Source: Chaetoceros tenuissimus
Lineage: Eukaryota; Bacillariophyta; Thalassiosirophyceae; Chaetocerotales; Chaetocerotaceae
NCBI GenBank assembly: GCA_021927905.1
Contig: BLLK01000023.1
Coordinates: forward strand, 620,001 to 684,000
Length of the DNA: 64,000 nucleotides
Direction: 5' to 3'
The number at the start of each line of letters is the position of its first letter. Position 1 is the stretch's first letter. The notes beneath the pieces are model-generated. The model saw nothing but the letters and a program-made list of their open reading frames with translations, searched no databases and was not told where the DNA came from. Positions 6,764 through 48,160 of this stretch are shown here, in pieces. The position numbers were made by a program, and so were the translations under genes.

Positions 6764-6974
6764 AAACTATGGAAAAAGGAAAAATAGAAAATCTCCAATC
6801 TCCAGTGATGATGAAGTAGTGTAAGTGTCCACTTTACGTTAAAAGCCGTTTGGTATGAAGTATACGTACTAAGACAATGACAAGGGCTTTTAGCGAAAAG
6901 ATATTTTTTCGGTGAATATTTGTGTTTATTGAAGGTTAACAAATCCTCGCTGCAGTTTCTTTTTGTATTTCAGG

Positions 6975-9450
6975 CAAGTGAGGTGAACGAGTGCACACTT
7001 TTCTATAATAATTACTTTTGTAACAGTTTTGCGACGCTACATAAGTAGTAAAGCATTCGCAATTGTATCCTAAAAAAAATAATGACAATTCCAATGTTTG
7101 GCGTTTGAGAGATACACAAGAATATGTCTATCTTTATTTACAACAATATTGTACTACAGTATTTTCATTTCTACAATCACATTGTGAATGAAATCGATTT
7201 GATGATTCTGTTTGACTATTTCCCCTCAGCCATTGAATTGTTCTATGGACCCCTGTCTTCACTATTCATACTCTTGCATCGTCTTGTCAATTCTCAACTA
7301 CATATAGCCATCCAGATAATGACATGATCATCCAATCACTTTCCTCAGGTTCTAGGACAATTATTTTCTTCGAGATATTTCAATATTTTCTTGAGCCCTG
7401 GCCTTGGCTTTGTAGAAATCATCTTCTTATTTCGAAGACCCGATGATTCAAAACAATACGCGTATGTATCTTTGTTCCATTCGCATCCATTCTCATGGGC
7501 GTATTTCAGCAATTCAAAATTATTCCTTCGGACAGCAATGTTACAAATGTTTGCATTCCATGGACATTTGTAAAATCTCAACCATTGAAGCACTCGGAGA
7601 TCTTCACTCCTAGCAGCCATTTCACAAACACTCGCATCCCATTGAATATCGTATTTGCGGAGGAGCCGCAGTTTCTCAATTGTTTTAGATGATGAATTAT
7701 ATCTGCTGATATGAATACTTTTGTACAATTCTGTATCATTTTTGTCTCGAGTCTCCTCTAAACGATTCTTGTCTTTATTCGCAAGGCAATGTTCCATCAA
7801 AGGAATACTGGTATTAAACATGGCAAGGGAAAGGGTTTTGAAATCCATCTCACAACCATTATTCCTCGCCCATATGAATGCGTCATAGTTGTCATGGTTA
7901 ATTGCCTGATAACAAGTCTGATAATTCCAAAGACAGGAACGTTGACGCAACCACTTCAAAGTTTCAAGTGCTTTCAGGTCATCTCTCGCATGCATAGCAA
8001 ATGTGCAAAGATCAGCCGATAATTCGCATCCATTCTCAAGACAATACTCTAAAATCTCTATACTGCCACTCATGGCAGCAGAGTTGACTGTCTCGTTCGG
8101 ATTCCATGGGCACCCTTTGCTTCTAGCAAATTTCAATGCGCATAGATTGTCAGTTTTAGCTGCTAGTTCACACACTTTCTCATCCCAACGACATCCATGC
8201 TGATGTAGAAATTTCAAAGTCTGTATTACTTTGGCTTTATCTTTGTTCTCAAAGGCGTCATGATAGGCACTGGAATCAAAAGGGCAGTTGTTCTCGTGAT
8301 AATACTCGAGCATTTCAATGCTACCACTTTCTGCTGCTGCTGCGAATACGGTTTCATTGGATTGGGGATGGGTCTTTTCTTGAATGAATTTGATCATTTC
8401 TACACTGCCAGATGAAGCTGCCGTTTTATGATACCAACTGTTTGATAGATATTCAGTTCCGCAATCTGCAAGCCATCTAAGAATATGAAAATGTCCATTG
8501 AGAATTGCTCCGTCAATTGATTCTTGAATTTCTAATGTTTCGTACCCACTTCTAGTGAAGAATTCAACTTTCTCTTGAAACCACCGTAAAATATGAAGGT
8601 GACCCTTTATTGATGCAGCTTCAACTGCTATCGATGACTTTATATCACCCAACCACAGCCAGGAAAACCTTTCAAACAAGTATTTGAGCATATCTAGGTT
8701 GCCTTCTTCTGCTAGCGTTCCTAACATGAGATGGGTTTCGCCAGAAGCACTGTCTGTAATATCAGCGTCCTCGTTAGGCCTGTAACGTTCACCAAAAACT
8801 TCTCTTTCAAAATCAACACCAAAGACAGTAGCGCATTCAATGATGTCTTTGCGACCCTTCATAATTGCCTTTTGACAAACTTTGTTCATGAACTTGTTTG
8901 GAGCATTGCTGATGAAGCTCAACTCTGTCAAATACAAATCACTAGACACGGCATCCGCGGTAGTTCTTTTATTTCTTCCAATCTTCAGCAATGTATCTGC
9001 TGAGTTGACAGTATTACTATCATCCATACCGACAGTGCAGTAGTTCTGAAAGAACTGTTTTGATACAGGTGCAATTGTAATGTAGCTACCAGGAACGAAA
9101 CTAAAGCAGTGCTTCAAGAGATCATTTGGTAGATCAATAATGGACATGAGCGGCTTCTCTCTGGTATCGCTAGTGCGTGCGACTTTCAATCTCTTGTTGC
9201 TCATTGTGCTTGTCATTATGTAGTTCCCTAATGATAGAATAGGTTTTTATTGTGTATAGCATTTAATTCAAAGGTGAATTGATTGTTCTGGCTTCATTGT
9301 TGTTCATCGGGCGGAGTAGACAACAAAAAGCCTTTTCCTTGAGCGCGAGCAGAAGGTCAAAGTTCAACTCTATACTGCTAGGCCTTTCTGGCATTCTTCT
9401 ATCTCAATGATGGACTTTGGAAATTTGAAAACAAATTAGAAAAAAATCAT
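6975..9450 (-). repeat. Tandem duplication unit A (copy 4 and its flanks)
   Basis: The 3' flank (GAACGAGTGCACACTTTTCT, then TTTGGCGTTTGAGAGA), the whole coding region and the 5' flank (AAAGCCTTTTCCTTG, GAGCAGAAGG, GAAAACAAATT) are all matched by 9652-12105. Similarity outside the coding sequence shows that the unit was copied as DNA about 2.7 kb long and fairly recently. Borders are approximate, set by eye. Confidence 0.75.
7345..9216 (-). CDS. F-box/ankyrin-like CPW-repeat protein, copy 4
   Basis: Intact single-exon gene of 623 aa starting MTSTMSNKRLKVARTSD; the inner Met (MSNKRLK, 9204) is the family start and equally likely. The F-box region is SIIDLPNDLLKHCFSFVPGSY, followed by NKRTTADAVSSDLYLTE. 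The repeats include HQHGCRWDEKVCELAAK and RQRSCLWNYQTC, and the C-terminus is ILKYLEENNCPRT. It is the intact partner of the frameshifted copy 5, with which it shares flanks. As for its relatives, an adaptor role in SCF ubiquitin ligases is the family expectation, not something seen directly. Confidence 0.87.
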   Translation of the reverse strand: MTSTMSNKRLKVARTSDTREKPLMSIIDLPNDLLKHCFSFVPGSYITIAPVSKQFFQNYCTVGMDDSNTVNSADTLLKIGRNKRTTADAVSSDLYLTELSFISNAPNKFMNKVCQKAIMKGRKDIIECATVFGVDFEREVFGERYRPNEDADITDSASGETHLMLGTLAEEGNLDMLKYLFERFSWLWLGDIKSSIAVEAASIKGHLHILRWFQEKVEFFTRSGYETLEIQESIDGAILNGHFHILRWLADCGTEYLSNSWYHKTAASSGSVEMIKFIQEKTHPQSNETVFAAAAESGSIEMLEYYHENNCPFDSSAYHDAFENKDKAKVIQTLKFLHQHGCRWDEKVCELAAKTDNLCALKFARSKGCPWNPNETVNSAAMSGSIEILEYCLENGCELSADLCTFAMHARDDLKALETLKWLRQRSCLWNYQTCYQAINHDNYDAFIWARNNGCEMDFKTLSLAMFNTSIPLMEHCLANKDKNRLEETRDKNDTELYKSIHISRYNSSSKTIEKLRLLRKYDIQWDASVCEMAARSEDLRVLQWLRFYKCPWNANICNIAVRRNNFELLKYAHENGCEWNKDTYAYCFESSGLRNKKMISTKPRPGLKKILKYLEENNCPRT

Positions 9451-9651
9451 GAATTTATTCAGATGGATACACTAAACTGTTTTTACCATACCAATAATAT
9501 TTCATAACTGTACTTGATCTTCAACAGGAAGCAAGTCTATTTCAAAGTCTATGCAAACCTAGGTTCATTTCCATTATCGCTGATATCGTTTGTAAAGTCT
9601 GATTAATTTCCTTTTTGACAACTGTATCGCAATGTCTTTCGTAATATTGAG

Positions 9652-12105
9652 TCAAGCGACGTGAACGAGTGCTCTCTTTTCTATGAATAATTATTTTCAT
9701 AACAGTTTTGCAACGCTACAAAGTAGAAAAAGCATTTGCAATTGTATTCTAAAAAATGACAATTCGAATGTTTGGCGTTTGAGAGAATACGCAAGAATAT
9801 GCATATATTAGTTTACAACAATATTGCGCTACTATTTACTCATTTTGAATAGATTCGATCCTATTTACGAATCTTTCCTAGAAACTATACATTCTCCTAC
9901 GTATTACCCCGGCAATCTCTCGATCTAATATCTGCTATTGAATATGCTGCTCATGCTCCTTGGCGTCCATCCCAATCACTTTCCTCCGGTCTAGGACAGT
10001 CATTATCTTCAAGGTATTTGAGGATTTTCTTGAGCTTTGATATTGGCTTTGTAGAAATCTTTCCATATTGAAGACCCATGTATTCAAAACAATGCGCGTA
10101 GGTGTTTTTAGTCCATTCACATCCATTCTCATGGGCATATTTCAACATTTCCAAATTATTATTTCTAATAGCAGCATTACAAGTTCTTGCATCCCATGGA
10201 CATCCGCGGAAATGTAACCATTTTAGCACTTGTAGATTGCCACTATCAGCAGCAATTGCAGTAACACTTGCATTCCACTCATGGCCATATTTTTGAAGAA
10301 GTCTCAGTTTCTCGACTAATCCAGCAGTTGAATCATATCCTAATGTAAAGATAGACTTGCATATACTTGTAATATCGTCGGAATCCTCGTTTCGCCCCCT
10401 GATTTGGAAGAATTTACGATTCTTGTCTTGATTTTCAAGACAGTGTTCGATCACAGAAATATTATCACTACTCATGACCATCGAAAAGGTGATTGAATCC
10501 ATCTCGCAACCATTGTTTCTTGCCCACACAAATGCATCATAGTTTTTATATGTAACCGCGTATTGACATGTTTTATCATCCCAAGGACAGGAACGTTGGC
10601 GTAACCACTGCAAAGTATCAAGAGCTTTCGGATTATTTTTCTTGAGTACAGAATATGCACAAAGATCGGCCGATAACTCGCATCCATTCTGAAGACAATA
10701 TTCTAAAATATCTATATTGCCACTCATGGCTGCAAACTTGACTGTCTCTTTTGCATTCCATGGACACCCTTTGCTTCTCGCAAATTTTAATGTACGCAGA
10801 TTGTCAGTTTTAGCTGCAAGCTCACATACTTTCTCATTCCATGGGTACTCATGCAGATGTAGAAATTTCAAAGTCTGTAGAACTTTGGCTTTATCTTCGT
10901 TCTCAAAGGCATCATGATAGGCGCTGGAGTCAAAATGACAATTGTTCTCATGACAATACTTGAGCATGTCAATGCTACCGCTTTTTGCTGCTGCCGAAAA
11001 TAAGGTTTCATTGAATTGGGTATAGGACCTTTCTTGAAGAAATTTGAGTACTTCTACTCTACCAGATGAAGCTGCCACTTTATGATCAATCATTGCAGGT
11101 AAAACAAGTGCAATACGTTCAATATTGTCATCAGCCAGCCATCTAAGAATATCCAGATGTCCATGTAACGTGACTTGTTCAGCTACTCCATGGTCACTGA
11201 TAAAGTCTTTATCTCTCTCCTGAAACCACTGTAAAATGTGAAGATGCCCCTTTTCTGATGCACCATAAGCTGCTGCCGATGAACTTGCTTTGCAATCCAA
11301 CCAGGAAAATCTCTCAAGCAAGTATTCGATCATATCTAGAGGTTACCTTCTTCTGCTAGCGTTTTTATCATGGTGCTTTGACGGGGAACTCCACGTAACA
11401 TGATGTCAAGGATATCAACATAGCTATCATCGTCGAAGACGCCTTGTTTGAAATCAACGCCAAAGACAGTAGCACATTCAATGATGTCTTTTCGGCCCTT
11501 CATGATTGCCTTTCTACAAACTTCGTGCATGAACTCAATGGGCGCATTGTTGAGGAAGCCATATTCAGTCAAAAACACATCACTAGCAACGGCATCTGCA
11601 GTAGTTCTTTTATTTCTTCCAATCTTCAGCAATGCATCAGTAGATGATACTGTCAAGCTATCATCAATGTCAACAGTAGAGTAGTTACTGAAGAACTGTC
11701 TCGATACTGGAGCAACCGTAATGTAGCTGCCCGGAATGAAACTGAAGCAGTGTTTCAAAAGATCATTCGGCAGATCGGAAATAGATGTACATGGCACCTC
11801 TTTGGTACCATCGCTAGTGCTTGCGACTTTCAGTTTCTTGCTGCTCATAGCGCTCGTCATAATCTTGTTCCCTAACGATAGAATAGGTTTTATTGTGCAT
11901 AGCATTTAGGTTAAAGGTGAATATTGTTCTGGCTTCATTTTTGTTCATCAGAGTACCGGTATGTAGACTAAAAGCCTTTTCCTTGCGCGCGAGCAGAAGG
12001 TGATGATGTCATGTAGGACATTTTAGTTGAAGCAGATGTCAACGTTCAACTCTGGTAGGCCTTTCTTGCGCTTGACTTTCGAACTTTGAAAACAAATTGA
12101 GAAAA
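9652..12105 (-). repeat. Tandem duplication unit B (copy 5 and its flanks)
   Basis: Second copy of the unit at 6975-9450, in the same orientation and separated from it by about 200 bp. The upstream flank carries an extra stretch of roughly 40 bp (GATGATGTCATGTAGGACAT near 12000) that unit A lacks. Borders are approximate. Confidence 0.75.
9951..11860 (-). pseudogene. F-box/ankyrin-like copy 5, frameshifted
   Basis: Close paralogue of copy 4. The start MTSAMSSKKLK is at 11860; the frame is open a little further up, but this matches copy 4. The F-box (SISDLPNDLLKHCFSFIPGSY) and following block are intact, but the frame ends after TLAEEGNL. The rest of the protein continues in another frame from about 11333 (MIEYLLERFSW) to 9951. 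At the junction copy 4 reads ATATCTAGGTTGCC and copy 5 reads ATATCTAGAGGTTACC on the plus strand, a 2-bp AG gain. No splice signals explain it. It is either a young pseudogene or an assembly indel. Downstream repeats remain open over 460 codons, so any inactivation is recent. Confidence 0.75.
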
Positions 12106-13651
12106 ATGATGAGTAAATAAAATTATGTATTTGATAAAATATCGGTATTCAAAGATTTTCTATCTATCTACATTATCCACGTGAAAAGATAATATTCCAA
12201 ATCCTTATTTTCACTTTGTATCATCACTGATATCTGTTGCTTCTCTAATGATTTTTAATTGCTTGACCTATTAACTTAGTTTCATCATCATTTGCAATTT
12301 TGTTGATAGCATTTGCACTGGAATTTTTTACGAGGATTCAGAATTATCATCTGAAATATCATCGAAAGATTCACCAGAGTAATTATCCGAGTAAACATCA
12401 GAAGATTCATCAGGAGGTTTACTAGCTTCAATAGGTTTGATTCTCCAATCGCTTGATTCTGGTCTTGGACAACCATTTCTAACAAGATAATCATATATTT
12501 CTTCCATCTCTGATCTTGGCTTTGTTGGAATCTTGTCAACTTCATATGCGAGACCGAAACTTGTCATGCAATAGGCAAATGTGTGCTTGTTCCACTCACA
12601 GCCATTTTTATGCGCATAATTGCAAATGCCCACGTTTCACTGCACTGTTACATGTTTTTACATCCCATGGACATTGATGGCATCGTAACCATTGTAGAAG
12701 CTTGAGGTTATCAACATCTGTAGCCATGCGGCAAAAATCTGCAGTCCATTCATATCCATAATTTCGAAGAAGTTTTAATTTCTCAGTAATTAGAGAATTA
12801 GGTGCTGATGATCTGAAAATATCAGCAAAACGATAATATTCAAGCTTCTCGTAGTCTTGTAGAAAGCGCTCGAATAAAGTTGTGTCCTCAGATCCTATGA
12901 TTTGCTTCAGATTCAAGCTCCAGATAGGTCCACCACGTGGGCATCCGTTTTTATGCGCAAATATGAAACAAAAAAAATTCTTACTGTAGTATGCGCTGTG
13001 ATAAGTCCTTCCATCCCAAGGACATGAATGCCGACGCAGCCATTTTAAGATCTCAAGAGCCTTCAAATCATTTTTATTTTTCACGGCCTTTTCACAAGCC
13101 CTCGCATCCATTGGGCATCCATTGTCAAGGCAGTATTCTAATATCTTGATATTACCATTCTTTGCAGCAGAAGCAAATGTTTCCTCATTCCATGGACAGC
13201 CGTTATTTCTTGCCCACTTGAGGGCCTTCATATTATCATTTTCTGCAGCAGAAGAGCATGTCTTTTCATCCCATGGACAGTCATGTTCTCGTAGCCACTT
13301 CAATACTTTGAGGGCTTGATCTTTATCAATATTGCGCAATGATTCTGCGCAAGTCTCTTCGTCAAGATGATATTGCTTTTGGTAGAGGTATTCAAGCATC
13401 TCAATATTTCCACCTAGTGCTGCTCCTTCAAATGAATCGAAATTTACAAAAGTTTGTTCCAAATGTTTGAACAGTTGGATATTACCACTCCTGGCTATTG
13501 AAGAACTATACGATTCAAAACAAAGGCAGGAAAATTGCTTTTGACACCACATTGCACTCTCATAATTCCCTAATGTACCAATTTTGTTCACTATATCGTC
13601 GTCACCTATTTCTATATCCGGCATGAGGTTTTTCGCGGTTTTTTGGCCTCT

Positions 13652-13672
13652 CAGGTTGCAATTTGCAACCTG
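13652..13672. repeat. Subterminal hairpin, left copy
   Basis: CAGGTTGCAA and TTGCAACCTG are perfect complements around a single T, giving a 10-bp stem. The same hairpin, with TAT at its centre, occurs twice at the other end of the element. It may be a binding site for the mobilising enzyme (inference). Confidence 0.7.
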
Positions 13673-14419
13673 GACCCCTACGTACGTTTCTACGAGAAAA
13701 CCATACTGAGAGACACATTCCAAAGAAAAATCATAGTACAAAACACTAACAAAAATGATGCTATAGTATACTTGTTGTAAGAAAGGAATTTATATGTGTT
13801 TTGCTTCACACTAATATTGCATCTACTCTACCACACATGTTTGCAGTATTCTGCGTCCTCAGTTCACACACATATGTTGGATAGTCACATCTTACATATG
13901 GCCAAAAAGGGGGAAATTCAACGATTTATGCCTACTTTGGCAGCAAATATAGTGATATCTAGGTACTTCTCAGACTCGAAACACTCAACCTATGTCTTAT
14001 ACAAATACTAAATAAAGTATATATACGCTCATTTCGATGCTTTACCAGACTAGATTGTAGTAATATTTGGTGCTCCAAGACAACATTTTCCTGATTGAGT
14101 CGTATCTTGTGTCTTGAAATTTTACTATCAATAACCTATCATGAATATAGTGTGTATGATGAGTTCTCCCCCCCCTTTTTTTGGCTTACATAACATATGA
14201 GTATGTCATGTATATGGGTGAATGGAAGACGCTCAACACTTCGGACACGTGTATTTGACCATGTTCCATCAAAGTGTGTACTAAAAAATGTATCAAATCT
14301 TTTTACACTAGCTGCATTATTAGCATTATTTGTACTAGTTATTTGTGTTTTTTACCGCGTAGTTTCTGTGACTTTTGTCCTCACATATGGTTTTCACGTA
14401 GAAAACCCCGTAGGCCTCT

Positions 14420-14471
14420 CAGGTTGCATATTGCAACCTGGACAGGGGGGCAGGTTGCATATTGCAACCTG
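14420..14471. repeat. Subterminal hairpins, two right copies
   Basis: Two copies of a GGTTGCATATTGCAACC-type palindrome (14420-14440 and 14451-14471) are separated by 10 bases rich in G. Together with the left copy they make three hairpins in one small element. Confidence 0.7.
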
Positions 14472-15159
14472 GGAGCTCATGCCGGATATCCATGAGTATT
14501 GCGTCAGGATCTATCTCAGAAATCCAATCCAGTATTTCCACATGGCCACTTCTTGCGGCACCAAGCATGATTGTTTCCCAGCCTTCAATGCTCAATCTTA
14601 GACCATCCTCAGAAAATTGAATCAACTCAAATTTTGAATTTAAAAATTTCAGCATATCAAGATCGCCTTCCCGTCCTAGTGTCTCCAAGACGTCATAGTC
14701 CAATTTGAAAAGCTCATCTTCTTCTCCATATTCTACTCCGAAAGCAACTGCACACTCTATGACATCATGATGCCTCTTGATAGCTGCTTTATTACATACT
14801 TTGTACACGAACTCTTTAGGGGCATCTAAAATGAAGCTCAATTCTGTCAAATACACATCATTCGACACGGCATCGGCAGTGGTCCTTTTATTCCGACTAA
14901 TTTGAAACAATGCATCTGCTGAGTTGACAGTATCACTATCGTCCATGCCCATAGTACAGTAATTACTGTAGAATTGTCTACAAACAGGTGCAACAGCGAT
15001 GTAGCTACCAGGAATAAAACTGAAGCAGTGCTTCAAGACATCATTCGGTAAATCCTTTAGAGAAGCCGATGGCTCTTCTCTGACGATTGGGCTGACATGT
15101 GTAGTTTTCAATCTCTTGTTATTCTCATTCATACTTGCTATGACAAAATTTTCCTTCAT

Positions 15160-15847
<688 letters not shown>

Positions 15848-27012: not shown

Positions 27013-29042
27013 GCCTTGTAGCTTATAATTAAAATTATATAAAAGTTACAGTTGCCTGTTGCCCTGATGTTTGAACAGCAGGGTAATAATATTCATAATG
27101 CCATCTGCCACAACCACGTAGTCTAGAGAGCTAAGTAGAAGTTATTATGATTAGTTCTATACTAGATGTAACGACGGTTGTTGCACATGTGTATTCAGCG
27201 ATGCGTTGGGATAGCGTTCGTGTAGGAAGGTATCCTCCGATAGGCCATTCCATGACGTCACAGTCCTCTAACGGTTCTGCTAACGGTCACGGTTGTGGCA
27301 TTCTCCTCCCTAATTGAATTGAAACTAGACAAAGTCCAAACCGACATAACAACCAACCATATACCCAGTCACAGAGCTACTTGGGAACAAAAACCACAAT
27401 GTATTCGAAATGTCTTTGAATGTAGGAAAAAGCCGATGGCAAAAAACCTACTGATAAAAAAATCAAAAAAAGTTTGTTCATGTGCAGCGAGTCATGAATC
27501 TGTATGGGGGGTTTATTCGAAGTGAGGAGTGAGTCGACGAATGTTCAGACGCTCTTCTGTAATTCCTTTTTGGATAGTTACAGTTCCATTAGTATGTACC
27601 TGAATAATATTAAAAGGACCTTCATGTGGTCACCGTCCTTGACGATGTACGCTCTATCCCCGACCTTGTAGTCGTGATCTATGCGCTTGCTATTTTCGCG
27701 AATGTTGTCATTAATAATTTGGCGCTGCTTCTTCTGCCAAGTCGCTTGATAATCATGCGTGTAGGAGATATCAAGGAGCATATCACGCCCAAAGACTAAT
27801 TGTCCCGGTGTAGCATTTAAAGTACTATGAAAGCTACAGCGTATTGCATATGCAATTGACGTTAGCGTCGGAGTCCACAAGTCTCTAATGTCAAACTCTT
27901 GGTTCATCAGGTCAGATGACGTGAGCATGTTGCCAGTCACTTGATGGATCCTTTCGAGTATTGAATTAGCTTGAGGGTTTTTGATGGTAGTGCACTTGGG
28001 TTTGATTGCCATATCTTTGAGTAATGGTTGAAAGTTCTTTTTGAATTCAGAGCCATTGTCATACAATACTTGTCTTGGTCTAGGATACCTAGCTAGCCAA
28101 ACACTATCAAGTAATTGTGAGATTGCAGCAGAGCTCTTGTCATCTATGACTTGAGCCCATTCGAACCAACCAGTAGCGGGATCGATAAACGTCATTGCAA
28201 GCAATTTGATTTCTTGTTCAATGACCTTTCCGTCTAGCTGGCGTACTTTAGCCTTAAGAGAATAAGGACCAACAAGATCTACACACAACGTGTCCCATGG
28301 CAGTAAATCTTCCGGTTCTTTAGGCGGCACATGTCCATATTTATTGTTTCGTTTCTTGAACTTTTGACAAGTGTCACACTTTTTGCATAGTCGTCTAGAC
28401 TGTGCGGTTATCCCATTCCAAGTAGCTATTCTTTGAATAGTAAAGTTCCCGAGACACAAAAAGATACATACAGCAAAGGCAGCTTTCTTCTGTAACTCCT
28501 TCTTTCTAGATGTCGAGACAGTGGAGAGATCCGAAGACGAAAGGCACCGCCTTGAGTAAGGGTACGGCTAGAGGCAACAAATACCTCTGTGAAAAGCCAA
28601 CCATTACGTACAAGAACCGGGCTATCGTTTTTGGCAACTGCCATCTGGCACTTGCTGGTTGCACTAAGGATGGGATCCAAGCAAGCCTACCATGTCCAAT
28701 CTTTGAGACTGGTTCCACCCCTACCAAAGCCAAGAGTTTACTCAACATTGGCAAACAGTATGTGGATGTGGCTACGGACTACCTTAACCAACCTCATCAA
28801 TGGTGCCAGACATTTAACCATACATACTCGCATCTGCTCAAAGCCAAGCAGCATCCCAACCCGCTCGAGTTTATCGAATGCATGCTCTTTATCTCAAGAG
28901 ATAGAGCTGCCGATATGCTCAGTAGAGCGTGTGAGACTGCCTTATTGGAGCCTTGTAGCTTATAATTAAAATTATATAAAAGTTACAGTTGCCTGTTGCC
29001 CTGATGTTTGAACAGCAGGGTAATAATATTCATAATGCCATC
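27013..29042 (-). mobile_element. Fossil Ty3/gypsy-type LTR retrotransposon fragment (integrase)
   Basis: The minus strand at 27578-28459 encodes an integrase: the tail of an HHCC zinc-binding region (CKKCDTCQKF), a retroviral-type core (WDTLCVDLVGPY, VLYDNGSEF, NPQANSILERIH) and a module with NATPGQLVFGRDM, which is usual in Ty3/gypsy pol. No gag, protease or reverse transcriptase was found, so it is broken and incomplete. It lies between two apparently identical 93-bp direct repeats (27013-27105 and 28950-29042), each with a CCCTGATGTT hairpin. These may be parts of its terminal repeats. Their identity suggests a young event. An unrecognised open stretch on the plus strand (28510-28965) overlaps it and is not called separately. 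Confidence 0.7.
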
Positions 29043-36106: not shown

Positions 36107-39100
36107 CTAAGTAGATTCATCCTCCATCATTTTTTGAAAAGAATCCCTCCATATCTTTGCATCTTTCTCTGCCTCGATACGTTTCTTTTTCTCTTCTTCC
36201 AGTTGCTGTTTCATCTGCAGTAACTCTCGTTCTAACTGAGATTTTTCCTCTTCATGAGCTTTTTGTTCTATCTTGCTTAGTTCTGATATTCTTGCTATTT
36301 CAAGCTCTGCTGCTACTCTCATCGAAATTGCATTTGATAGTTGCTTACATAGTTCCATGAGCTCCTCCTCAACATTTTGGACCATTCTCTTCTCAATCTT
36401 AGAAAGACTGTTGATATCTGGGATTGTTTCCTGTCCTAGGAAAAAGGCAGCAGCAGGAGCACTATTCTTATCATTTGACTCTTCAATGTACTTTAACTTT
36501 GATTCAAGATTATCAATTCTTTTCAAATGCATGTCCATTTCATGTGTGTGAAGAACACTGGATGATACAAGCATGCTATGGGAATCATCTCTTTGTGATA
36601 GTGCAGATGATAATGCATTCAAAAGTATCTTGTTTGATTCTCGTATTTGATTGAATGTATGATTACTCTTGAAATTATCAGATGTAGAAGTTTCTGAACA
36701 CGAAGGTATGGAAGAAATTTTAATCAATTTCGAAATAAGATTCTCACTTCGGGAAATTGCTTGCTCGCACTTGTGCAAATCTGTCAGCAATATTTCTTGT
36801 GAGATATCTTCTCCCGTGTCTTCTTTATGGTCAGAAGATTTCTCCTCTACTTCGAGTTCTACTACCTCAAGAATGTCGTTACTCAAATCGAGAAAATCAG
36901 CTACTGCATGGAGTAGTTTCTTTGGTAGTGGTGACAGAGTCAATGCCTCAAGGAAAGATGATACTGAAGAAGCTATCAAAAAATTTTAACATGTTGAGGA
37001 TTCCTGGATAAAAGTGGTATAAGTTGAAGCTACTTATTGTACTTACCAATCAGATCAAGATCTAGATCGTCACTCTCTTGAGACTTATGTTGAAGCGCTG
37101 GAAAATCCAAAAACGCTTTCAGAATCAAACCACTTGAAGAAGCCTGTGACATTAATTTTGCAATACTTTGCTTCTCCAGAAGACTAATCTCGATGGAATT
37201 TTGTATTGAGAATGATAGGGACGTCACCGTCGTGAAGAGTGCCATGATATTTGGGAGAGACTTGACAACAGTATTTTCTAGACTGGATTCCTTTTTAGAC
37301 ATAGTCTTACGGGTGAAATGAATTTCAAAATGAAGATCTAAGGGTAATGGTGTGTCCCTTTCTTGTGCGTTGTCCACTGAAGACGATTTTTGGAGCACAT
37401 GTACTTCAAAATTCCATACTCCTGGTATGCTCGTCAACGAAGTGTCTTCTTTGGTTAAAGGCTCTTTTTTGGCAGGCTCCACATCTACAGTTGTCAAGTT
37501 CTTTATTCGTAGCTGCTCTACATCTGTTGATGCGTCGATGCCATTTGACTTTCGTGCAAATGTCTTCTTCTCTATCTTCATGTTCTTCACGTTCTCATTC
37601 ATATTTTTGACATTATTTTTCAAAGTAGACTTCATCATATTCATTCTATCTCGAAATTTGTTGCCACGTTTAAACAGATTTTGGCTCCCTTCTTCCGGTT
37701 GATAATGGTTTCCTTCCTCAGGTTCTACATAATCCTCCGAAAGGGTGTGAGTCTGCTCCAATCCATGCATGCTGTCCGATGCCGACATTGCATCTTGGTT
37801 CATTGACTGGTCTACTTCAGAAATATCATCATCAAAAGTAACATGTAAGCTCAAAAGATCCTCGTTGCTATTCAATTTCTCAATAGCACCTACAGACTCT
37901 GCGGTACTTAGCCTTGACCGCTGAGGTATATCTGACGACTCAGCTGTACTCAATCTGGATCGTTGAGCGACTTCATGAAGCTCCTTTGGTGTGACCTGCT
38001 TTAGCATCGAAATCCATTTCTCATAATCCGAAGAAGAAGGAGCTATGAAAAATGTCCTTTTCCCATTCATCTCTACAATCGAAAATGCCCTACTGAAAAT
38101 ATGTTTGGCTCCACTTCCTCTAACACTTTTAAGAATTGCGCCATTCAAATTAATCATCATTCGTGGTAATACCTATGGACAAAATGTTATAAGCATTTGA
38201 TCATTGATACTTAAAAACAAATAGAAGATGACTTACTCTATTTGAATCTTGGAAGGCAATAAGGTGGTGATCTCTAAGTACAACGAAATAACTCCAAAAT
38301 GCTGTAGACGACGTAAATCTTTGACCTGTAAAAGAAGTTGCGTTTATTCGTAGCATTCCACTCATATCATGGTTTACTAGTGATAAAGCCGACAGGCGCT
38401 CTACCTCAGATTTGAATAGCATCTTCTGCAATGATTGAATTTCCTCATTGGAAGCAGAAGAGAGTTTCTCTGTTTTTGTTTGAGCTTGTTTAGTTAGTGT
38501 CTGACGAGTAGTCTTGAGAATATTGGATACTTTAGGCAGCTCTTTCTTCGAGTGGTCAAGTAAAAGTGTAGAAGGAGATTCATGATTTTTAGACACATCC
38601 TTGGGAGATTTCTGTCTAAGTGTCCCATTCACAAACATCAAAACTGTCTCCCCTTTACCTTTTATGTAGGTAAAAGTTTCTTGCCATTTAGGAAGCATTT
38701 GTATGTTCTTTATTTTGAGGAAACAACTTTCCATCCCCCCTTCCAAAGAGTTTGGATGGAGATAAATTTTGTTTCTTGATGTTGGAAGAATGGTTTCGAC
38801 TTCAGTACTATCGCGCTGTAACGATATCTTCTGCGTGATTGCTAAGGAGTGATGAAAACCAGGACTTTGATCTTGGACGCATTTGTTCCAGTGCTTTTCA
38901 TAAGCATTTGGGGTAGAACCGTTTCTTGAAAAGCCACTGTGTATCTTCAAAGCTTCGCAAGTATACTTTATAGATTCTTCAGGTTGTACATGATGATGTA
39001 GAATAAGATCCATCTGTGTTGCCAAAATATCAAAATGTAAGAATTGAATTGATCTTGGTTCCATAAAGAGAATCTTGGATAAAATGTGCAGCCTGAAATC

Positions 39101-41172
39101 ATCATCATTGTCTAGCAAAACTGAGCTAAAGTCAATCTTTGGTATCGAATACCCCCAATCTTCTTGCGCGATTGTTCCAATTAATTCTTCCAGTGCCTTT
39201 TCAAGTACAACACTGAATCTAACTTCGCCACTGTCTGCAACAACTTGAGTAAGCACTGCTCCAGGCGTTAGGTCTTTCTCAAATCGGAACCCAAGGCAAT
39301 GGTGACTATCATCTTCACTTTCATGCCCAAGTCGAAAGATATCATTCATATTATTGTTGTGAATGGATGGTATGATTCCCTTCATCGATCGTACAGTTCC
39401 TTTTGCCAAAATGTAGGATTCTGTAGACATCTTTTTATTGGGAAAGAAATAAGCTCCAAAATCGACACTCCTTGTATTGAATTGAAGAATGGAATGTAGA
39501 GGTCCATTCTCACTTTCAAGATTATATCTATGGAGATTGAGGTCAAAACTATCACAGCTAAATCTTGTAGTAATATTGCAAGACGCTATCGTCTCTTTCA
39601 TTAAGCCAGATAGCTCATGAGAGGATTGGAAGAGTGATTGTGCCTCCAACTCCAAGAAAGGTCGCAACCTAGATAACCCACATGCGACTAGCCCTGGCTC
39701 AACATTCATCTGTATATTCTGTACTAGATTTGTCACAAAAACATGATGCAATGCACCATTCACAATATCTTTGGATGTCTCCAAACTGATTCCTTGGAAA
39801 AGCTTATCAAGTTTCATCACTTCAATTTTCTCAAACATAGGAACATAGGGACAGTATATGATGGATGCATCTGAAAGAACTATTTTCATCCTAGCTACCT
39901 GTGTCAATTTGGTGTCAGAGTATTTGTCATCGGTTTGCTCATTCATGCCTAGTCTCAATTCATCCGTGAGAAACATTCGAGGTAATGAAGGTGACATTAC
40001 AAATTGTAATTCTGAAAAATTGATGTCGTATCCACCATCTTTGATTGACTTTGGCGTGGTAATTGGGATATGCAAACAAGTATCGTAGGTAATAACTGTA
40101 ATATCAGCATTTTGAAGAGAAAATTTCGAAAGCAGTGATGTTGCCGGACGATGAATCGCATTGCTAATATCAACTGTTGAAGCTTCTGTCTGCCAATCAC
40201 AATTCAACCATCGGGGTTCGATATCACGAATACAAACCTGCATCGCTTTAAATATTCGAGTACAAACATCAATATTTGCAACAATATCCAAGTTATTGAA
40301 ACCAACTTCATTGGATATTGTAAACATACTAGAAGAAGACAATAGCTTCTCCTTTCCCTTGACTCCAAGTAATAATTTCATACCAAAGGCTTGAATAGGA
40401 AAGGTAGATCTAAAATCTTCTGGATCACTTCGAACATTAGTTTTTTCAAAGAATGGAAAAATTTCTTCAGGTGAAGTCTCCTTGGAAGGATCATATTCTT
40501 TGTCATTCCGATGACCTCCATGCATGATATGAGTTGTGGTTTCTCCTCGTTTCTCATGTATGTTGATGTATGCTAATGAAGTTTGTAGACAGCAACCTAG
40601 GTCTCTGGATCCATTTTTAGGCGCAATCACCTCCGCCACAAATCCATTCATGTTAATTTGCAAATATTCATTCTTGACATCTGGATAATTGAATCGAATA
40701 CGCATTTGATTGACAGCCATGGTGAGTGCAATCTTTTCAAACACAATCAATCCTGCTGGTAAAATCAACACAGGCCAAATTTCCTTTTGTGCAACATCAT
40801 CTTCTTCATCGCTGAGTGAATCATCTGACGCATAGGCATCAGGAATCATTTCTTCCTTGTCAACTCCATTAGTAGAAACTACATCATTTTGTTTTTCTAC
40901 ATGTTGCTTTTGAGGTTTACTTGCATCACTGGAAGCAAACGGATCGACAAAGGACTCCTTCTTAAAACAAGCTTGAACTCCAAGTAAAAAGTGAATCAAA
41001 ACATGTATTACCCCCGCATCTAACTGTATCTCCACATTACTCAAGGATGCATCAACTTGAACAGCCAAAATCTGATTATTCTTGATACCCCGATGCAAAC
41101 AAATATGTGCCTGCATCTGTACTTGCGACATGAGTCTCGTACCAGTCATGAACGAATCTCTCGCTGACATGT
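36107..41172 (-). CDS. PH-domain, VPS13-like large protein (5' end lost in gap)
   Basis: Three visible exons: 38237-41172 (running into the gap), 37047-38172 and 36107-36972, with introns of 64 and 74 bp; about 1640 aa are visible. A PH domain is split by the first intron: SGMLRINATSFTG...FWSYFVVLRDHHLIAFQDSNR, then LPRMMINLNGAILKS...RTFFIAPSSSDYEKWISML. The upstream part is beta-rich (LSNVEIQLDAGVIHVLIHFL, IVFEKIALTMAVNQMRIRF) and reads like the repeating RBG/chorein modules of VPS13-type lipid-transfer proteins. That assignment is moderate. The last exon ends in a coiled coil (KSQLERELLQMKQQLEEEKK). VPS13-type proteins move lipids at organelle contacts. The N-terminus is missing. Confidence 0.6.
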
Positions 41173-41272
41173 NNNNNNNNNNNNNNNNNNNNNNNNNNNN
41201 NNNNNNNNNNNNNNNNNNNNNNNNNNNNNNNNNNNNNNNNNNNNNNNNNNNNNNNNNNNNNNNNNNNNNNNN
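41173..41272. other. Assembly gap (100 N)
   Basis: Exactly 100 N, the conventional size for a gap of unknown length. A different minus-strand gene is cut off on each side, so the gap must hide the 3' end of the lectin-like gene and the 5' end of the PH-domain gene. Alternatively the join may be wrong. Confidence 0.95.
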
Positions 41273-44200
41273 TGACTGAGCCTCCGTTGAAAATACCATT
41301 TGTATTTCCATCAATTGCAAGGGATGCTCCTCTTGGAACAATATTGTAGGTACTTGATTGAGTAGCTATGGCTCCATTGGTGCTCAGTGCAACATTTATC
41401 GGCGGGCACTCTACATGAAACAAGGGTAGCATCCAGTGTTAGTACTAAACGTGAATTTGGAGAAAGGCAAACCAATCAAACAATGTGTGAAGTTATAATA
41501 CTAACCAACATAAGGTGTACAAGTCATGCCATCTATCGGCGAACTAGATTCATAGACTGCCGGCATACCCCATTCACAGGAGCCATCATTCCAGTAACCT
41601 GTACTTCCGATTCTTAAGCAATCTCCAATGCCACCGCCATTATCAGGTTCACCAGATGACCAATTGGAATATGATGCAACATAACCATCTGAGAGTACCC
41701 ATGTGCCTTCGTTGTCGATGTCATTCCCTCCAATCCAGTAAGTATGTGGAGTTTTGAACGACTGAACCTTTGCATTTTGCTCACTACAACGTATTGCAAC
41801 CAGTCTTCCTCCATTACTCGAAGCAACTTGTGCACTAGCACTAAATGAAAGAAGCTGCGACTGAAGACAAATATATCCTGCAGGGTCAGGAGTTGTAGGC
41901 GAAGATGTCGGTAGAGGTGTGGGTGCTTTTGTCGGCTATTACATGAAGTAAACGAAATATCATAAGATTCGGAAACACACAAAGTATATAAAGACGAAGA
42001 GAATGGACTTACGCTTGATGTTGGAGTAGAAGTGGGAGCGGGTGTGGGTGCTTTTGTGGGCTAAAATAAGAGATGTAAAATGAGATTTACCATATAATAT
42101 TTCAAGCGATATCACTTCACTCAAAGCCAACTTGCAATAAAGTACTTACACTTGATGTTGGTGAAGATGTTGGACTGACGGTTTGAATATTCGAAGGACT
42201 GGCAACAGTCCATTCATATATCTTCAAATTCGCTCTCCATGGTCGCCAATAGAATCTTGAAATAGCCACATTGTAATTAGCAATTGATGCTACCTCTTCT
42301 TCATTGATGTAGAATTTGATGGTGCCAAGCTTGCGCTCGATTTTGAAGTAAAAGAGGTTATCATGATGAGTTCCTTTATTCGATTGTACAAAACCAGTAA
42401 TAAAAGCGGAATTGGAATGGGTGAAAAGATGGTTGACAATTTGATAACTGCTTCCATCAAATCCGAAATTGTCAAGGTCATTGATGAAAAATGAAGCAGC
42501 CGATCCACTTCCATCTACTTTTAACTTAGCTAACATGAGGAAATCATCGTTTGCACCAATTGGAAGGTTGTATACATTCCAATTATCTGCACTTGTCGCA
42601 GTAGTACTGCCAGGTACACTAAGGTATGCTCCAGTTGTATCAGATTGCGTTACTAGATTGTTGTTGCGAAAAAGTGTGTCTGATGTTTGTATACCATTTT
42701 CTACAATCTTGACTGTATCCTGACACCCTTTAGAAAACAAAACACGCACAATGGTAAACAATATGAACCAAATTCCATTACAACGAGAGAAATTAGAATG
42801 AGTACTTACCAACATATGGAGCACACTGTAAGCCAGGTATTTCAAAAGTTGATTCAAATATTGAACCCCTTAACCTTCCACATTCAACATCATTCCAATT
42901 TCCATTAGCTTTAATTACCACGCAATTTTCCACATCAGAACCGTCAGGGTGACCTGGAGCCCAGTTTGAATAAGTCACCGCATTGCCATCTGGCAAAACC
43001 CACACGCCTTCATTGTCAACATCTGTACCTCCAATATATACATTTAGATCTCTTGTCAAAGAGTGCACAGCAATTTGCTGCGCACTGCAACGTATGGACA
43101 CTAAATTAGCACCTGTCTGTGTAGTTACAGCCGCTTTAACACTCTCAGTGTATGTGCGTGGATTACTATCTAAACAGATGTAACCTGCTGAAACAGGGGA
43201 TAGCTGGAAACTCTTTAGATTCATGATTCCCCCATTTGAAGAAGTGCCCTTGAAAGTCAATTGATCAATACCATAGCTAGCCTTGATCGGGATTTCCACT
43301 GTGACGAAAGTACCCCAACTGCCTGTGCTTGCTGGTGAATATGTACCAATGATTTCACCAGTCTGATAATCACCCTTCCGGATCTCAAATGAACCACCAG
43401 TAGTACCCATCTTTGCATATATGATCTCAATGCTGTTGGCTCCTGACCCAAAATCAATAGGGCTGTATGTGAAGTAGTCACCATTATTGAAGCTTCCAAT
43501 GATGTCACCAGAGGCGAATACTCCTGAAGATGTGCTCACTTCAGTTGCAGAGAGAGTGGTATATGGTGTATACCTCTCGGAGAGGTCAATCAATTCATAA
43601 GAAATCAAATGTATCGTTGCAGTTGTTTCCGAAGTAGTAAAGGTCAAAGAGTTTACTCCAGACAACTGGACTGTGTTATCAAATGGAATCAACATAGTTT
43701 TGTTGCTTACATCTACCCACGTGTTTGTCCCAACAGGAGTAAACTCAGCAATAGTGGTACCAGATGTATCGCCCAGTTTGACTTCCACTGAGCCAGAACT
43801 ATTTACTTCGCCATTAGCATAAGTTATTTTGATTCCTTTGACGTTGTTGGTAGACCCAAAGTTAACATTATCGAAAGTAATGTGACTGTTTTCGTCTCCA
43901 AGAAGATATGGATCTTGCGATGGATTTGAAGAGGGACTGAGTGATGGTAAATCGGACGGGCTTGACGAAGGACTATTCGACGGCACTAAAGACGGACTAC
44001 TTGAACCAATCATGAAGCTTATCTGCTTTGCAATAGCACCAGTTATATCTCCAATAACATTACTACTACTGATTGTCGAACCATCTCCAAAAGTGCCTCC
44101 ATTGTTTGTTCCTACAGAGTATACCGAATCATCATGAAATACAGCATGGCCTGTGTATTCACCAACATGCACTGATAGAAGATTTTTCCTAGTTATGTTA

Positions 44201-45643
44201 TCAAATGGTGTTACCAAAGTAGGGTACAATACATTTGCTCCTCCATTTGCAATTCCCAACTGATGCCAACGATTGTTACCAAAGCACATTGGTTTTCCGC
44301 TCGCTACGAGGCATGTAGAAGAATGTGCAGCATTAATATCCGTGATTCCTGAAAGCTCAATACCAGTTGAATCTTGAAGAATAAATACAGGCGTGGAAAT
44401 ATAAGCCGAGGTAAACTCAGCTGAACCAATGCCAAGCTGACCTTTATGATTTGTGCCCCAGCATTTAGCCTTGGTAGTATCCAACAATGCACAAAAGTGA
44501 GTAGATCCTGCTGTAAGAGCTGTTACAGTATTTCCCAAGTCAATTGTGGTAGACACAGTATCACTGCTAGAATAACCATAACCGACGCAGATGACTTGCG
44601 TTGTATCTGATGCTGTAATAGCACAAGTTGCTGATATTGAAAGTGCAATCAAAACTATCGATCTTGCTTGGTCAACTCCATCAGCTAAACTATTGAATCC
44701 AAGCTGTCCATCAGTATTGAAGCCCCAACAGTATACGGCTCCTGTATTTTGAATGGCACAATTATGATATGGTCCAGCTTCAATATCAAAAACATTTGTA
44801 AGAATGACACCATTCTTTTCGACTTGTACGGGAGTAGCTGAGTTCACAGTACCACCATTTCCGAGCTGCTGAAAGCCATTAGATCCATTGCACCAAACAT
44901 GTCCATCATTGAATAAAGTGCATGTATGATCGTACCCAGTGACGACCTTTTTAGGCTTGGCAGTAATACTACTTGGAAAGTTCAATAGAACCGGAGTACC
45001 AAAAGCAGTAGAGGTAGATTGTCCAATCTGTCCGTAGTAGTTGTATCCAACACATTGAACTATATCATATGCTAGTAGACATGCATGGGCAGAGCTTGAG
45101 AATTGAAAGGCTTGATGGCCATCGAGATATCTCCTTCTAAAAGCATTCTGATTCTCTTCACTATGTCTTGCAGTTGATGTGTTAACTTTTCCAAATTCTC
45201 TAATACTTAGTGCCAGTCTTCTTTCTTGTTCTTTCAAATGGTGGACATTAGAGCTATGACCTTTTCTTTCCTATTTTTATGAAATCAATGAGTTAGTATG
45301 GCATCAAATAACAATTACAAAAGAATTAATTGACCTGAGAATAACCCCTAAGAACACACTACTAGATCAGAATCTTAACTTCAAGCTAGATGAGAAACAT
45401 TATGTTTCTTGGATTACCATGTTCTAATTTTTGCCCTCAATTTTATCATTTTGCTTGAAAAAGATATGCAATCATTTTGAGACTTACCTGTTTCTCCGAC
45501 CCTACTTCCACTGCTGCAACCAAAAGAGAAAATCGCTGTGTACTACTAGTTGTCGTTAAGAATATGGACAAAGCAGCGATAAGTACTACACCAGCCAGTC
45601 TTCTTGGAAGTTTTGCAGCACCTCTAAAATACTTGGCACACAT
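41273..45643 (-). CDS. Mosaic surface protein: RCC1-like, CBM6-like, C-type lectin, ConA-like, F5/8C
   Basis: Six exons traced from splice signals: 45488-45643, 42810-45270, 42150-42727, 42013-42060, 41506-41935 and 41273-41410 (into the gap); about 1270 aa. Order: a membrane anchor or signal (LAGVVLIAALSIFL); RCC1-like blades (GHVWCNGSNGFQQLGNGG, AVYCWGFNTDGQLGF, KCWGTNHKGQLG); a Pro/Ser linker; two CBM6-like modules; a C-type lectin domain (YIGGTDVDNEGVWVLPDG, NWNDVEC); a ConA/laminin-G-like domain; a PT-rich linker; a second C-type lectin domain (YWIGGNDIDNEGTWVLSDG, YWNDGSC); then the start of an F5/8C domain (NVALSTNGAIATQSSTYN). All are sugar- or surface-binding folds, so a wall or adhesion role is inferred. 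The second lectin exon lies in a frame that simple ORF calling misses. Confidence 0.85.
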
Positions 45644-46177: not shown

Positions 46178-47209
46178 ATGAAGTATCACATACTCAGTGC
46201 AATCACACTCTTTTCTGCGCTCTCGGCAGTATCCGGCTTCTCGTCTATGCCAAGCTCATCTATCAAGTCGGTCAAACAAACAAGCTCACTTTCAGCAACC
46301 ATTGAAGAAGCGACCGATGACTCACTCACCGACAAGGGACTCTTGAAAAGAGACAGATACGTAGCAACCAACCGTTTCGCGGTGCGTAAAGGCAAAGGAG
46401 CAAAATTTGAACAAAGATGGGCAAATCGTAAATCACGATTGAGTGAATTACAAGGATTCAAATATTTCCACTTGATGCGAAGAGTCACCCTCGAAGAAGA
46501 TGGAACTAACACCTATGATGAAGGATCCAAAGCGGATGGAACGAATATGGGTAACTATGTCAGTTTTACAGTATGGGATCGTAAATCTGATTTCTCAGCG
46601 TGGCGCAAAGGTGAAGCCAAAGAGGCACATGGCGGAACGAGTATCAGTGCATTCATGTCGACCATGATTTCTAGTGCGTTCATTCTAGCTGGGCCTCCTC
46701 GACCTGCTTTTTATGATTCCATCCTAGTTCAATCTCTTCCACCTGTTAATGTTCCTGAAACTATTGATGGTTGGAGAAATGTAGAAGCGGATGGAAAGAT
46801 TAATCTTCCTGAAGAATGTTTTGTAGCTTGTAATCAATTCTTTGTTCCAGCGGAGAATGCAGCGGCTTTTGAAGAGAGATGGGCGAATCGTGAGAGTAAA
46901 TTGAAGGACTGTGAGGGATTTGTAGCATTTCAATTGTTGAGAAGGGATACTGGTGGCAAAGGACATGGAGTAGTTCCTATGGATGAAGCTACAGAACCAA
47001 CTTATATGTCCACTACCATCTGGAAAGATCGTGCAAGCTTTAACAAATGGCGTGACGGAAATGCATTCAAAAAGGCACATGGAGAAGCGAAACCGCCTTC
47101 AGAGCAAGGAAGTGAAAAAGCTGGACCACCAAAGCCTCTTTGGTCCAAGCCTCCAACTCCTATTTTCTACGAAGGTACTCTGGTTATTTCCAAACCTGAA
47201 GGATTGTAA
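46178..47209 (+). CDS. Tandem ABM-domain protein (heme-oxygenase-like), plastid-targeted
   Basis: Single exon; I choose the Met at 46178 (MKYHILSAITLFSALSAVSG), which gives a clean signal peptide and an SGF junction of the diatom plastid type. A longer start at 46070 would hide it. 343 aa. Two related halves each have the ABM (ferredoxin-like dimeric beta-barrel) pattern: NRFAVRKGKGAKFEQRWANR with KYFHLMRRV and WRKGEAKEAHGG, and NQFFVPAENAAAFEERWANR with FQLLRRD and WRDGNAFKKAHGE. Each half ends in AGPP(R/K)P-FY. Some ABM proteins (IsdG/HmoA type) degrade heme and release iron, others are monooxygenases. A role in chloroplast heme or iron handling is an inference. Confidence 0.85.
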   Translation: MKYHILSAITLFSALSAVSGFSSMPSSSIKSVKQTSSLSATIEEATDDSLTDKGLLKRDRYVATNRFAVRKGKGAKFEQRWANRKSRLSELQGFKYFHLMRRVTLEEDGTNTYDEGSKADGTNMGNYVSFTVWDRKSDFSAWRKGEAKEAHGGTSISAFMSTMISSAFILAGPPRPAFYDSILVQSLPPVNVPETIDGWRNVEADGKINLPEECFVACNQFFVPAENAAAFEERWANRESKLKDCEGFVAFQLLRRDTGGKGHGVVPMDEATEPTYMSTTIWKDRASFNKWRDGNAFKKAHGEAKPPSEQGSEKAGPPKPLWSKPPTPIFYEGTLVISKPEGL

Positions 47210-47290: not shown

Positions 47291-48160
47291 TTATTTCTTT
47301 CCGAGTGGCACTTTGCAAACACACCCTTGATTATATTTCGAGCCTTTCTGTTTCTTTTTATTTTTTGACTTCTTCTTATTCTTAAAACAGATGTCTGGTA
47401 CACATTGAAAGTTTGTGTCATCTTTGCAGTTCGAAACGCAAACTCCACCCATTTCTAGGCATTTATTATTGGTCTTACATGTTTGATCAGTAGTATTCGC
47501 TGGACAATAGCATTTTCTTGTCATTCTATATACGCATGTGCTTGGCTCCGTGGCACTGAGTTGGCCATCTTGTCCTTGATCCGAAGTTAAGATGATCCTA
47601 AAAGTTCCTCTCCTATTTGCACTGACTCTACCACAATAGTTCCCTCCTCTATATTTAGCAGCTTGGCCAGTTATGAAAGAAAAAGTCCCCACTTTCTCAT
47701 CACTAGGTAAGGGGTCAGGATATTGATAATACAAACTACCTTCCTTGCCCATGTTTTGAATGGTGTAAAGGTATCCACCTTGGCTTTTAGAAAAGTCATC
47801 CCCAATGAAGTTATGAATACTACACTTTTCGAAGCAATTTTCTAGGAACGCGTTACTGAGGAAGTCAGTATCTTTTGTTTCTTGTACTTTATTTGCAGGA
47901 GAACGTGCCATTGATGAAGAAGTGTCGGTGCTATTCTGTGAAAATGGTATGTAGAAGAAAGAGACGAGAAAACATGAGATGAAATATGATATATGACTAT
48001 TCTTTTTCATCCTTCACTACAGAGACAAGAAGTAAATACTTACCACAACTGCTACTACTTCTCCTTTCTCTTCAGACGTCAATCCATCGTTCTTTGCACC
48101 ACCACATGCAATTGTACTAGCACCAGTGAATATCACAACTGCTTTTGTCAGTAATTTCAT
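47291..48160 (-). CDS. Cys-rich secreted protein, unknown
   Basis: Two exons, 48044-48160 and 47291-47935, with a 108-bp intron (GTAAGT...TCACAG); 253 aa. The first exon encodes only the signal peptide region (MKLLTKAVVIFTGASTIACG) and a short acidic linker. The mature part carries 16 or more cysteines in pairs such as CYCPANTTDQTCKTNNKC, CVSNCKDDTNFQC and GCVCKVP, interrupted by a Lys-rich stretch (KNKKKSKNKKKQKGSK). I recognise no family; the Cys pattern suggests a small disulfide-bonded extracellular domain. It is divergent from the SAP-domain gene. Confidence 0.75.

What the first reader, a model, noticed from the sequence alone, without database searches (positions are those of the whole stretch)
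41273..45643. Mosaic adhesion-type protein with six kinds of binding module
RCC1-like blades, two CBM6-like modules, two C-type lectin domains, a ConA/laminin-G-like domain and an F5/8C domain in one chain behind a membrane anchor is an unusual combination that I do not recognise from another lineage. It suggests multivalent sugar binding at the cell surface, for example in aggregation, wall assembly, mating or bacterial contact.
Basis: partly seen in the sequence, partly recalled or inferred. Interest (0 to 1): 0.7.

Follow-up and report, generated by a model that had tools for sequence, protein, structure and literature searches.

The report
Mosaic secreted lectin-like diatom protein
A single diatom gene, cut off by an assembly gap, encodes a secreted or membrane-tethered protein that strings together an RCC1-type propeller, two sugar-binding CBM6 modules, two C-type lectin domains and probably two further sugar-binding folds, so it looks like a multivalent cell-surface glue or recognition protein; its parts are familiar, and whether the combination is new could not be tested here.

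Summary
On the minus strand, six exons (45643 to 41273) with GT-AG introns and matching phases give one open frame of 1270 aa that runs into a 100-N gap. Pfam confirms an RCC1 propeller (5.8e-42; seven blade-like repeats, six with a cysteine pair), two CBM6 modules (3.3e-25, two stretches) and two C-type lectin domains (4.4e-12, 2.4e-14; about 44% identical to each other). The other two modules are not established. The ConA/laminin-G-like domain has no Pfam, NCBIfam or PDB match and only weak profile support (0 of 5000 shuffles score as high). The F5/8C domain is a 46-aa stub cut by the gap, with non-significant resemblance to fucolectins. The membrane anchor is unproven: a 14-residue hydrophobic stretch fits a signal peptide as well or better. 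Most likely this is a secreted or tethered multivalent glycan-binding protein of the diatom surface or mucilage; ligand, location and timing are unknown. No held paper or searched collection shows this module order, but no eukaryotic protein database was available, so novelty is untested.

The parts
45488..45643 (-). Exon 1: start ATG, basic n-region (net +5), 14-residue hydrophobic stretch LAGVVLIAALSIFL (45598-45557): signal peptide or signal anchor
   Evidence: translation and splice check; hydropathy; no Pfam match
42810..45270 (-). Exon 2 (820 aa): RCC1 propeller, P/S linker, CBM6a, CBM6b, CTLD1
44002..45108 (-). RCC1-type propeller, seven blade-like repeats, six with a Cys pair (C-x8-11-C[VWFN]G)
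   Evidence: Pfam WD40_RLD 5.8e-42, RCC1 1.6e-28 with 5 stretches, RCC1_2 4.8e-20; PDB UVR8/HERC/RCC1; Cys pairs
43906..44001 (-). Pro/Ser linker (PSNSPSSSPSDLPSLSPSSNPSQDP)
43582..43905 (-). CBM6a: shortened CBM6, one cleft aromatic lost
   Evidence: second CBM_6 stretch; PDB 1gmm E 0.0037; 31% identical to CBM6b, E 2e-7
43192..43581 (-). CBM6b: cleft Tyr and Trp kept
   Evidence: Pfam CBM_6 3.3e-25; PDB 2v4v 1.8e-12, 1gmm 3.9e-10
42811..43188 (-). CTLD1 (C-type lectin-like domain; HPD...ENC...WND)
   Evidence: Pfam Lectin_C 4.4e-12; PDB mannose receptor 2 2.5e-17, SP-D 8e-17
42150..42727 (-). Exon 3: beta-rich domain, tentatively ConA/laminin-G-like (42725-42195), then start of Pro/Thr linker
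   Evidence: no family match; weak similarity in register to Laminin_G_3 of phage PaBG adhesin; profile test 0/5000 shuffles
42013..42060 (-). Exon 4: 16-aa mini-exon PTKAPTPAPTSTPTSS, phase 0/0, near-copy of the start of exon 5
41506..41935 (-). Exon 5: Pro/Thr linker plus CTLD2 (41878-41507; EPD...GDC...WND), about 44% identical to CTLD1
   Evidence: Pfam Lectin_C 2.4e-14
41273..41410 (-). Exon 6, truncated by gap: 46 aa that could begin an F-type lectin or F5/8C (discoidin-like) fold
   Evidence: no Pfam match; PDB FBP32 E 0.33 and 2j1r fucolectin-related E 0.35; AIDGN fits the F-type cation motif h2DGx given in PMC5712786
41173..41272 (.). 100-N assembly gap hiding the C-terminus

Best explanation
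One diatom gene for a secreted or membrane-tethered mosaic glycan-binding protein. Shown: a single spliced ORF of at least 1270 aa with an RCC1 propeller, two CBM6 and two CTLD modules, joined by Pro/Ser/Thr linkers. Inferred: the hydrophobic N-terminus sends it into the secretory pathway. The disulphide-paired propeller serves as an extracellular platform. CBM6b, CTLD2, perhaps CTLD1, and the jelly-roll-like domains behind each CTLD bind several polysaccharide or glycoprotein sugars at once, cross-linking mucilage, wall glycans or neighbouring cells. The C-terminal half looks like a duplicated unit: CTLD, phase-1 intron, Cys, beta-sandwich.
For: Continuous spliced frame with GT-AG introns and consistent phases. 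Pfam families well above curated cut-offs for RCC1, CBM_6 and Lectin_C x2. PDB relatives are sugar-binding CBM6 modules of glycoside hydrolases and mannose-receptor/collectin CTLDs. Hydrophobic stretch after a +5 n-region. Cys pairs in six of seven RCC1 blades, as expected outside the cytosol. P/S and P/T linkers. CBM6b keeps the cleft Tyr and Trp and both CTLDs keep WND (alignments). Temporary-adhesion proteins of flatworm and sea star likewise combine lectin-type domains (PMC6410801).
Against: No expression, localisation or binding data. Both CTLDs lack one Ca2+ ligand each and CBM6a looks degenerate, so some modules may not bind sugar. The ConA/LamG-like and F5/8C or F-type modules rest on weak evidence. 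The C-terminus is missing. AlphaFold2 on single sequences was too poor to use.
Confidence: 0.6

Rival explanations
1. The missing C-terminus carries a catalytic domain (for example a glycoside hydrolase, lyase or sulfatase), and the modules target a polysaccharide-acting enzyme to its substrate.
For: The closest solved CBM6 relatives are attached to glycoside hydrolases, and the sequence stops at a gap. Diatom alginate lyases carry CBM32 modules (PMC11960938).
Against: No catalytic domain in the 1270 aa seen. RCC1 and CTLDs are unusual company for such an enzyme (own knowledge).
Confidence: 0.15
2. It is a membrane receptor for mating or bacterial contact: a type II signal anchor, or a TM helix in the missing C-terminus, with the modules recognising partner glycans.
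For: A conserved sexually induced diatom gene encodes one TM helix plus a beta-propeller and is proposed to act in reception or adhesion (PMC8027222). Basic n-region and hydrophobic stretch at the N-terminus.
Against: The hydrophobic core is only 14 residues; 19-residue windows are borderline for insertion. No cytosolic signalling domain seen. The published propeller domains are IPR013519/IPR011043/IPR015943; an RCC1 type is not named there.
Confidence: 0.17
3. The exons belong to two or more genes, or the locus is misassembled.
For: A 100-N gap adjoins exon 6, and the reading frame on the far side belongs to an unrelated ORF.
Against: Introns between exons 2 and 6 are 77-95 bp, too short for a terminator plus a new promoter and start. 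Phases agree at every junction. CTLD1 and CTLD2 in exons 2 and 5 are about 44% identical. Exon 2 has no usable Met near its start.
Confidence: 0.05
4. The RCC1 part acts inside the cell like RCC1 or UVR8, and the rest is incidental.
For: Best PDB relatives by sequence are UVR8, HERC and RCC1.
Against: N-terminal hydrophobic signal, Cys pairs in six blades and fusion to extracellular-type lectin modules.
Confidence: 0.03

Closest known systems
Temporary adhesion proteins Mlig-ap1/ap2 (flatworm) and Sfp1 (sea star)
   Same: Large secreted mosaic proteins that include lectin-type domains, used in attachment (PMC6410801).
   Different: They rest on vWD, EGF, C8/TIL and large repeats; none of these was detected here. 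The passages read do not list RCC1 or CBM6.
Diatom adhesive trail proteins (GDPH/vWD type, FAS1 proteins)
   Same: Secreted diatom proteins with proposed adhesive roles (PMC7335047, PMC8027222).
   Different: Different domains; no vWD or FAS1 match was seen in the present part of this protein, and GDPH could not be tested. The primary trail-protein paper was not held.
F-type lectins with CTLD (Drosophila CG9095/furrowed)
   Same: Mosaic of CTLD and F-type lectin domain with a TM segment (PMC5712786).
   Different: Those carry CCP modules, not RCC1 or CBM6; the F-type domain here is only 46 residues and unproven.
Mannose receptor family (MRC1, MRC2) and collectins
   Same: CTLD sequence relatives.
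   Different: Multiple CTLD arrays or collagen stalks; no RCC1 or CBM6 (own knowledge).
CBM6 modules of bacterial glycoside hydrolases (2v4v, 1gmm, 1w9s)
   Same: Sequence relatives of CBM6b, with the cleft Tyr and Trp kept.
   Different: Attached to enzymes; no catalytic domain seen here.
RCC1-type propellers (UVR8, HERC2, RCC1)
   Same: Propeller repeats.
   Different: Those are intracellular; here six blades carry Cys pairs and the protein has a secretory-type N-terminus.

Membership tests
RCC1 repeat / RCC1-like domain | Repeats matching PF00415/PF25390 | tested here: met
   RCC1 99.4 bits against cut-off 21.7, 5 stretches; WD40_RLD 5.8e-42 (144.7 bits, just under its cut-off of 150)
RCC1 repeat / RCC1-like domain | Closed seven-bladed propeller | tested here: inconclusive
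   Seven blade-like motifs by eye, six with Cys pairs; AF2 single-sequence model pLDDT 35 is useless
CBM6 | PF03422 match | tested here: met
   89.3 bits against cut-off 28.9, two stretches
CBM6 | Cleft aromatics (Tyr, Trp) of the sugar site | tested here: met
   CBM6b aligns Tyr and Trp with 1gmm; CBM6a keeps only the Trp. Role of these residues from own knowledge
C-type lectin-like domain | PF00059 match | tested here: met
   47.1 and 54.4 bits against cut-off 22.6
Ca2+-dependent C-type lectin (sugar-binding CRD) | Full set of Ca2+ ligands (EPN or QPD, E, WND) | tested here: not met
   CTLD1 HPD...E...WND; CTLD2 EPD...G...WND: each lacks one usual acidic ligand. Hence CTLD fold yes, Ca2+-dependent sugar binding unproven
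ConA-like / laminin G | Family profile match | tested here: inconclusive
   No Pfam hit up to E 10; 14.7 bits to a small LamG_3 profile built without the domain that gave the lead, 0 of 5000 shuffles as high; hhalign probability only 9%
F5/8C (discoidin) or F-type lectin | Whole domain with family match | tested here: inconclusive
   Only 46 aa before the gap; no Pfam match; PDB fucolectin hits E 0.33-0.35
F-type lectin | Fucose motif HX24RXDX4(R/K) | not testable with these tools
   Would lie in the assembly gap; the cation motif h2DGx is present as AIDGN (motifs from PMC5712786)
Membrane-anchored protein | TM helix or anchor | tested here: inconclusive
   14-residue hydrophobic core; 19-residue windows borderline; C-terminus unknown
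Diatom adhesive proteins | GDPH, vWD or FAS1 domain, or presence in secreted adhesive | not tested
   No vWD or FAS1 in Pfam output; no GDPH model or proteomics available

The most novel reading that the evidence does not exclude
A diatom-specific surface receptor or adhesin, assembled by duplication of a CTLD plus beta-sandwich unit behind an extracellular RCC1 propeller. It would read several glycans at once and, with a signalling or anchoring part hidden in the gap, control cell-cell or diatom-bacterium contact.
Probability: 0.12. Interest if true: 0.65.

Novelty: new variant of a known kind. Interest (0 to 1): 0.38.

Why it matters
Molecules that glue diatom cells into chains and aggregates, or let them recognise mates and bacteria, are poorly known. 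A single protein with several sugar-binding modules is a concrete, testable candidate. If the order is conserved in other diatoms, it would add a lectin-based class beside the GDPH, vWD and FAS1 adhesives. If not, it is one more lineage-specific extracellular mosaic.

Tried and rejected
Single-sequence AlphaFold2 of exon 3 (pLDDT 39) and of the RCC1-CBM6 part (pLDDT 35) is too poor to confirm or reject folds; a Foldseek search with the first gave nothing below E 0.03 and is disregarded. Scans of viral contigs (exon 2, RCC1, CTLD pair) and prokaryote genome contigs (exon 3, CTLD pair) found no relative. One phage locus, L001 (27% identity over about 95 aa of exon 3), is judged a chance match seeded by the peptide ADNWNVYN. 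The PaBG tblastn hit (E 7) is not significant by itself; it was used only as a lead, because it fell in register on a Laminin_G_3 domain. One phage record (L004) was left out of the LamG profile because its annotator likened the ORF to a protein of a listed toxin complex. The two-gene explanation was rejected on intron lengths and phases. Plastid targeting was considered unlikely (no ASAFAP-like motif seen by eye; no predictor available). Ten paper searches found no report of this module order.

Full report
Observation. The region 41273-45643 was rebuilt from the sequence. On the minus strand an ATG at 45643 opens a frame that runs through six exons, 45643-45488, 45270-42810, 42727-42150, 42060-42013, 41935-41506 and 41410-41273, and is still open at a run of 100 N (41173-41272). 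All introns are GT...AG, 217, 82, 89, 77 and 95 bp long and 29-36% GC. The coding phases agree at every junction, and reading through the introns meets stops in four of the five; the 77-bp intron would shift the frame. The product is 1270 residues without a stop. Exon 2 (820 aa) has no methionine before residue 380, so exon 1 is needed for its start. The short introns leave no room for a gene boundary between exons 2 and 6. The statement that these modules lie in one chain is therefore well supported, though no RNA data were available.

Modules. Pfam gives WD40_RLD 5.8e-42 and RCC1 1.6e-28 for residues about 107-475, CBM_6 3.3e-25 in two stretches for about 508-745, and Lectin_C 4.4e-12 and 2.4e-14 for the two CTLDs. 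PDB relatives agree: UVR8, HERC and RCC1; CBM6 of 2v4v, 1w9s and 1gmm; mannose receptor 2, SP-D and mannose-binding protein. CBM6a and CBM6b are 31% identical (E 2e-7), and the two CTLDs about 44% (E 3e-35). Seven blade-like repeats can be read in the propeller; six of them hold a pair of cysteines, C-x(8-11)-C[VWFN]G. I take this as a sign of an oxidising, extracellular setting, which is an inference.

Weaker modules. Exon 3 has no match in Pfam, NCBIfam or PDB (best E 0.14, unrelated). AlphaFold2 on the single sequence is nearly all-beta but with pLDDT 39, and its fold matches are not meaningful. An open search of phage DNA returned one protein at E 7, a putative adhesin of phage PaBG. The matched stretch falls inside a Laminin_G_3 domain (6.4e-39), in register at the shared pattern R-K-x-G-x-I-K-x-Y-[IL]-N-x-x-E-V-A. 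A profile of ten such domains scores exon 3 at 15.9 bits. Without the domain that gave the lead it scores 14.7, above all 5000 shuffles and above every window decoy (the nearest decoy ORF is exon 3 itself); hhalign gives a probability of only 9%. I call the ConA/laminin-G reading plausible, not shown. Exon 6 gives 46 residues before the gap. No Pfam model matches; the best PDB hits, all above E 0.3, are the fucolectins FBP32 and 2j1r. The AIDGN sequence fits the cation motif of F-type lectins, but their fucose motif would lie in the gap. The F-type lectin and F5/8C folds are described as analogous, and the two readings cannot be separated here.

Binding sites. From the alignments, CBM6b keeps the two cleft aromatics and CBM6a only one. 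CTLD1 reads HPD...E...WND and CTLD2 EPD...G...WND, so each has lost one of the usual Ca2+ ligands. Membership in the CTLD fold is met; Ca2+-dependent sugar binding is not established. Both CTLDs are followed by a phase-1 intron and then a cysteine at the start of the next domain. With the Pro/Thr linker between, the C-terminal half looks like two copies of a unit, CTLD plus beta-sandwich. A 16-residue mini-exon (42060-42013, phase 0/0) nearly repeats the start of exon 5 and suggests exon duplication in the linker.

Topology. The N-terminus has a +5 basic region and a 14-residue hydrophobic stretch. Over 19 residues it is borderline for membrane insertion on a scale written from memory. A cleaved signal peptide is at least as likely as a membrane anchor, and the missing C-terminus may hold a TM helix or GPI signal. 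Either way the modules should face outside.

Comparison. Temporary adhesion proteins of flatworms and sea stars also combine lectin-type domains but with vWD, EGF and C8/TIL modules (PMC6410801). Known diatom adhesives bear GDPH, vWD or FAS1 domains (PMC7335047, PMC8027222). A conserved sexually induced diatom gene has one TM helix and a beta-propeller and was proposed to act in reception or adhesion. Discoidin-type families are expanded in Cyclotella cryptica (an 85-gene cluster, PMC5124317), and CBM32 modules are used by Nitzschia sing1 alginate lyases (PMC11960938). So carbohydrate-binding mosaics are expected in diatoms. Ten paper searches found no account of this module order, but no eukaryotic protein database was available and the window's genome is not held. 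Novelty of the order is therefore untested.

Verdict. A real single gene with five firmly assigned modules of three kinds, two tentative modules and a missing C-terminus. The best reading is a secreted or tethered multivalent glycan-binding protein. It is a new variant of a known kind, of moderate interest.

Noticed in passing
window 60-15165: Cluster of related long ORFs with ankyrin-type repeats and a shared N-terminal 'LPNDLLKHCFSFVPGSYITVAPVSKQF' F-box-like stretch, apparently a local gene family (one scanned: Ank_3 3.3e-15). Ankyrin and HSF families are reported as expanded in Chaetoceros tenuissimus (PMC8613185), which would suit this genome; the species was not tested.
   Followed up: partly
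window 38201-41172: The ORF on the far side of the gap runs to it without a clear start and has no Pfam match, so the gap probably hides the 5' end of this gene as well as the C-terminus of the lectin protein; the true gap may be larger than 100 bases.
   Followed up: partly
window 46178-47206: Divergent neighbour with two ABM (antibiotic biosynthesis monooxygenase) domains (6.1e-20) behind a signal-like N-terminus.
   Followed up: no
window 27581-28567: Retroelement integrase fragment (rve 6.1e-8, Integrase_H2C2).
   Followed up: no
window 47291-48013: Secreted-looking cysteine-rich 240-aa ORF with Lys-rich stretch, no Pfam match.
   Followed up: no
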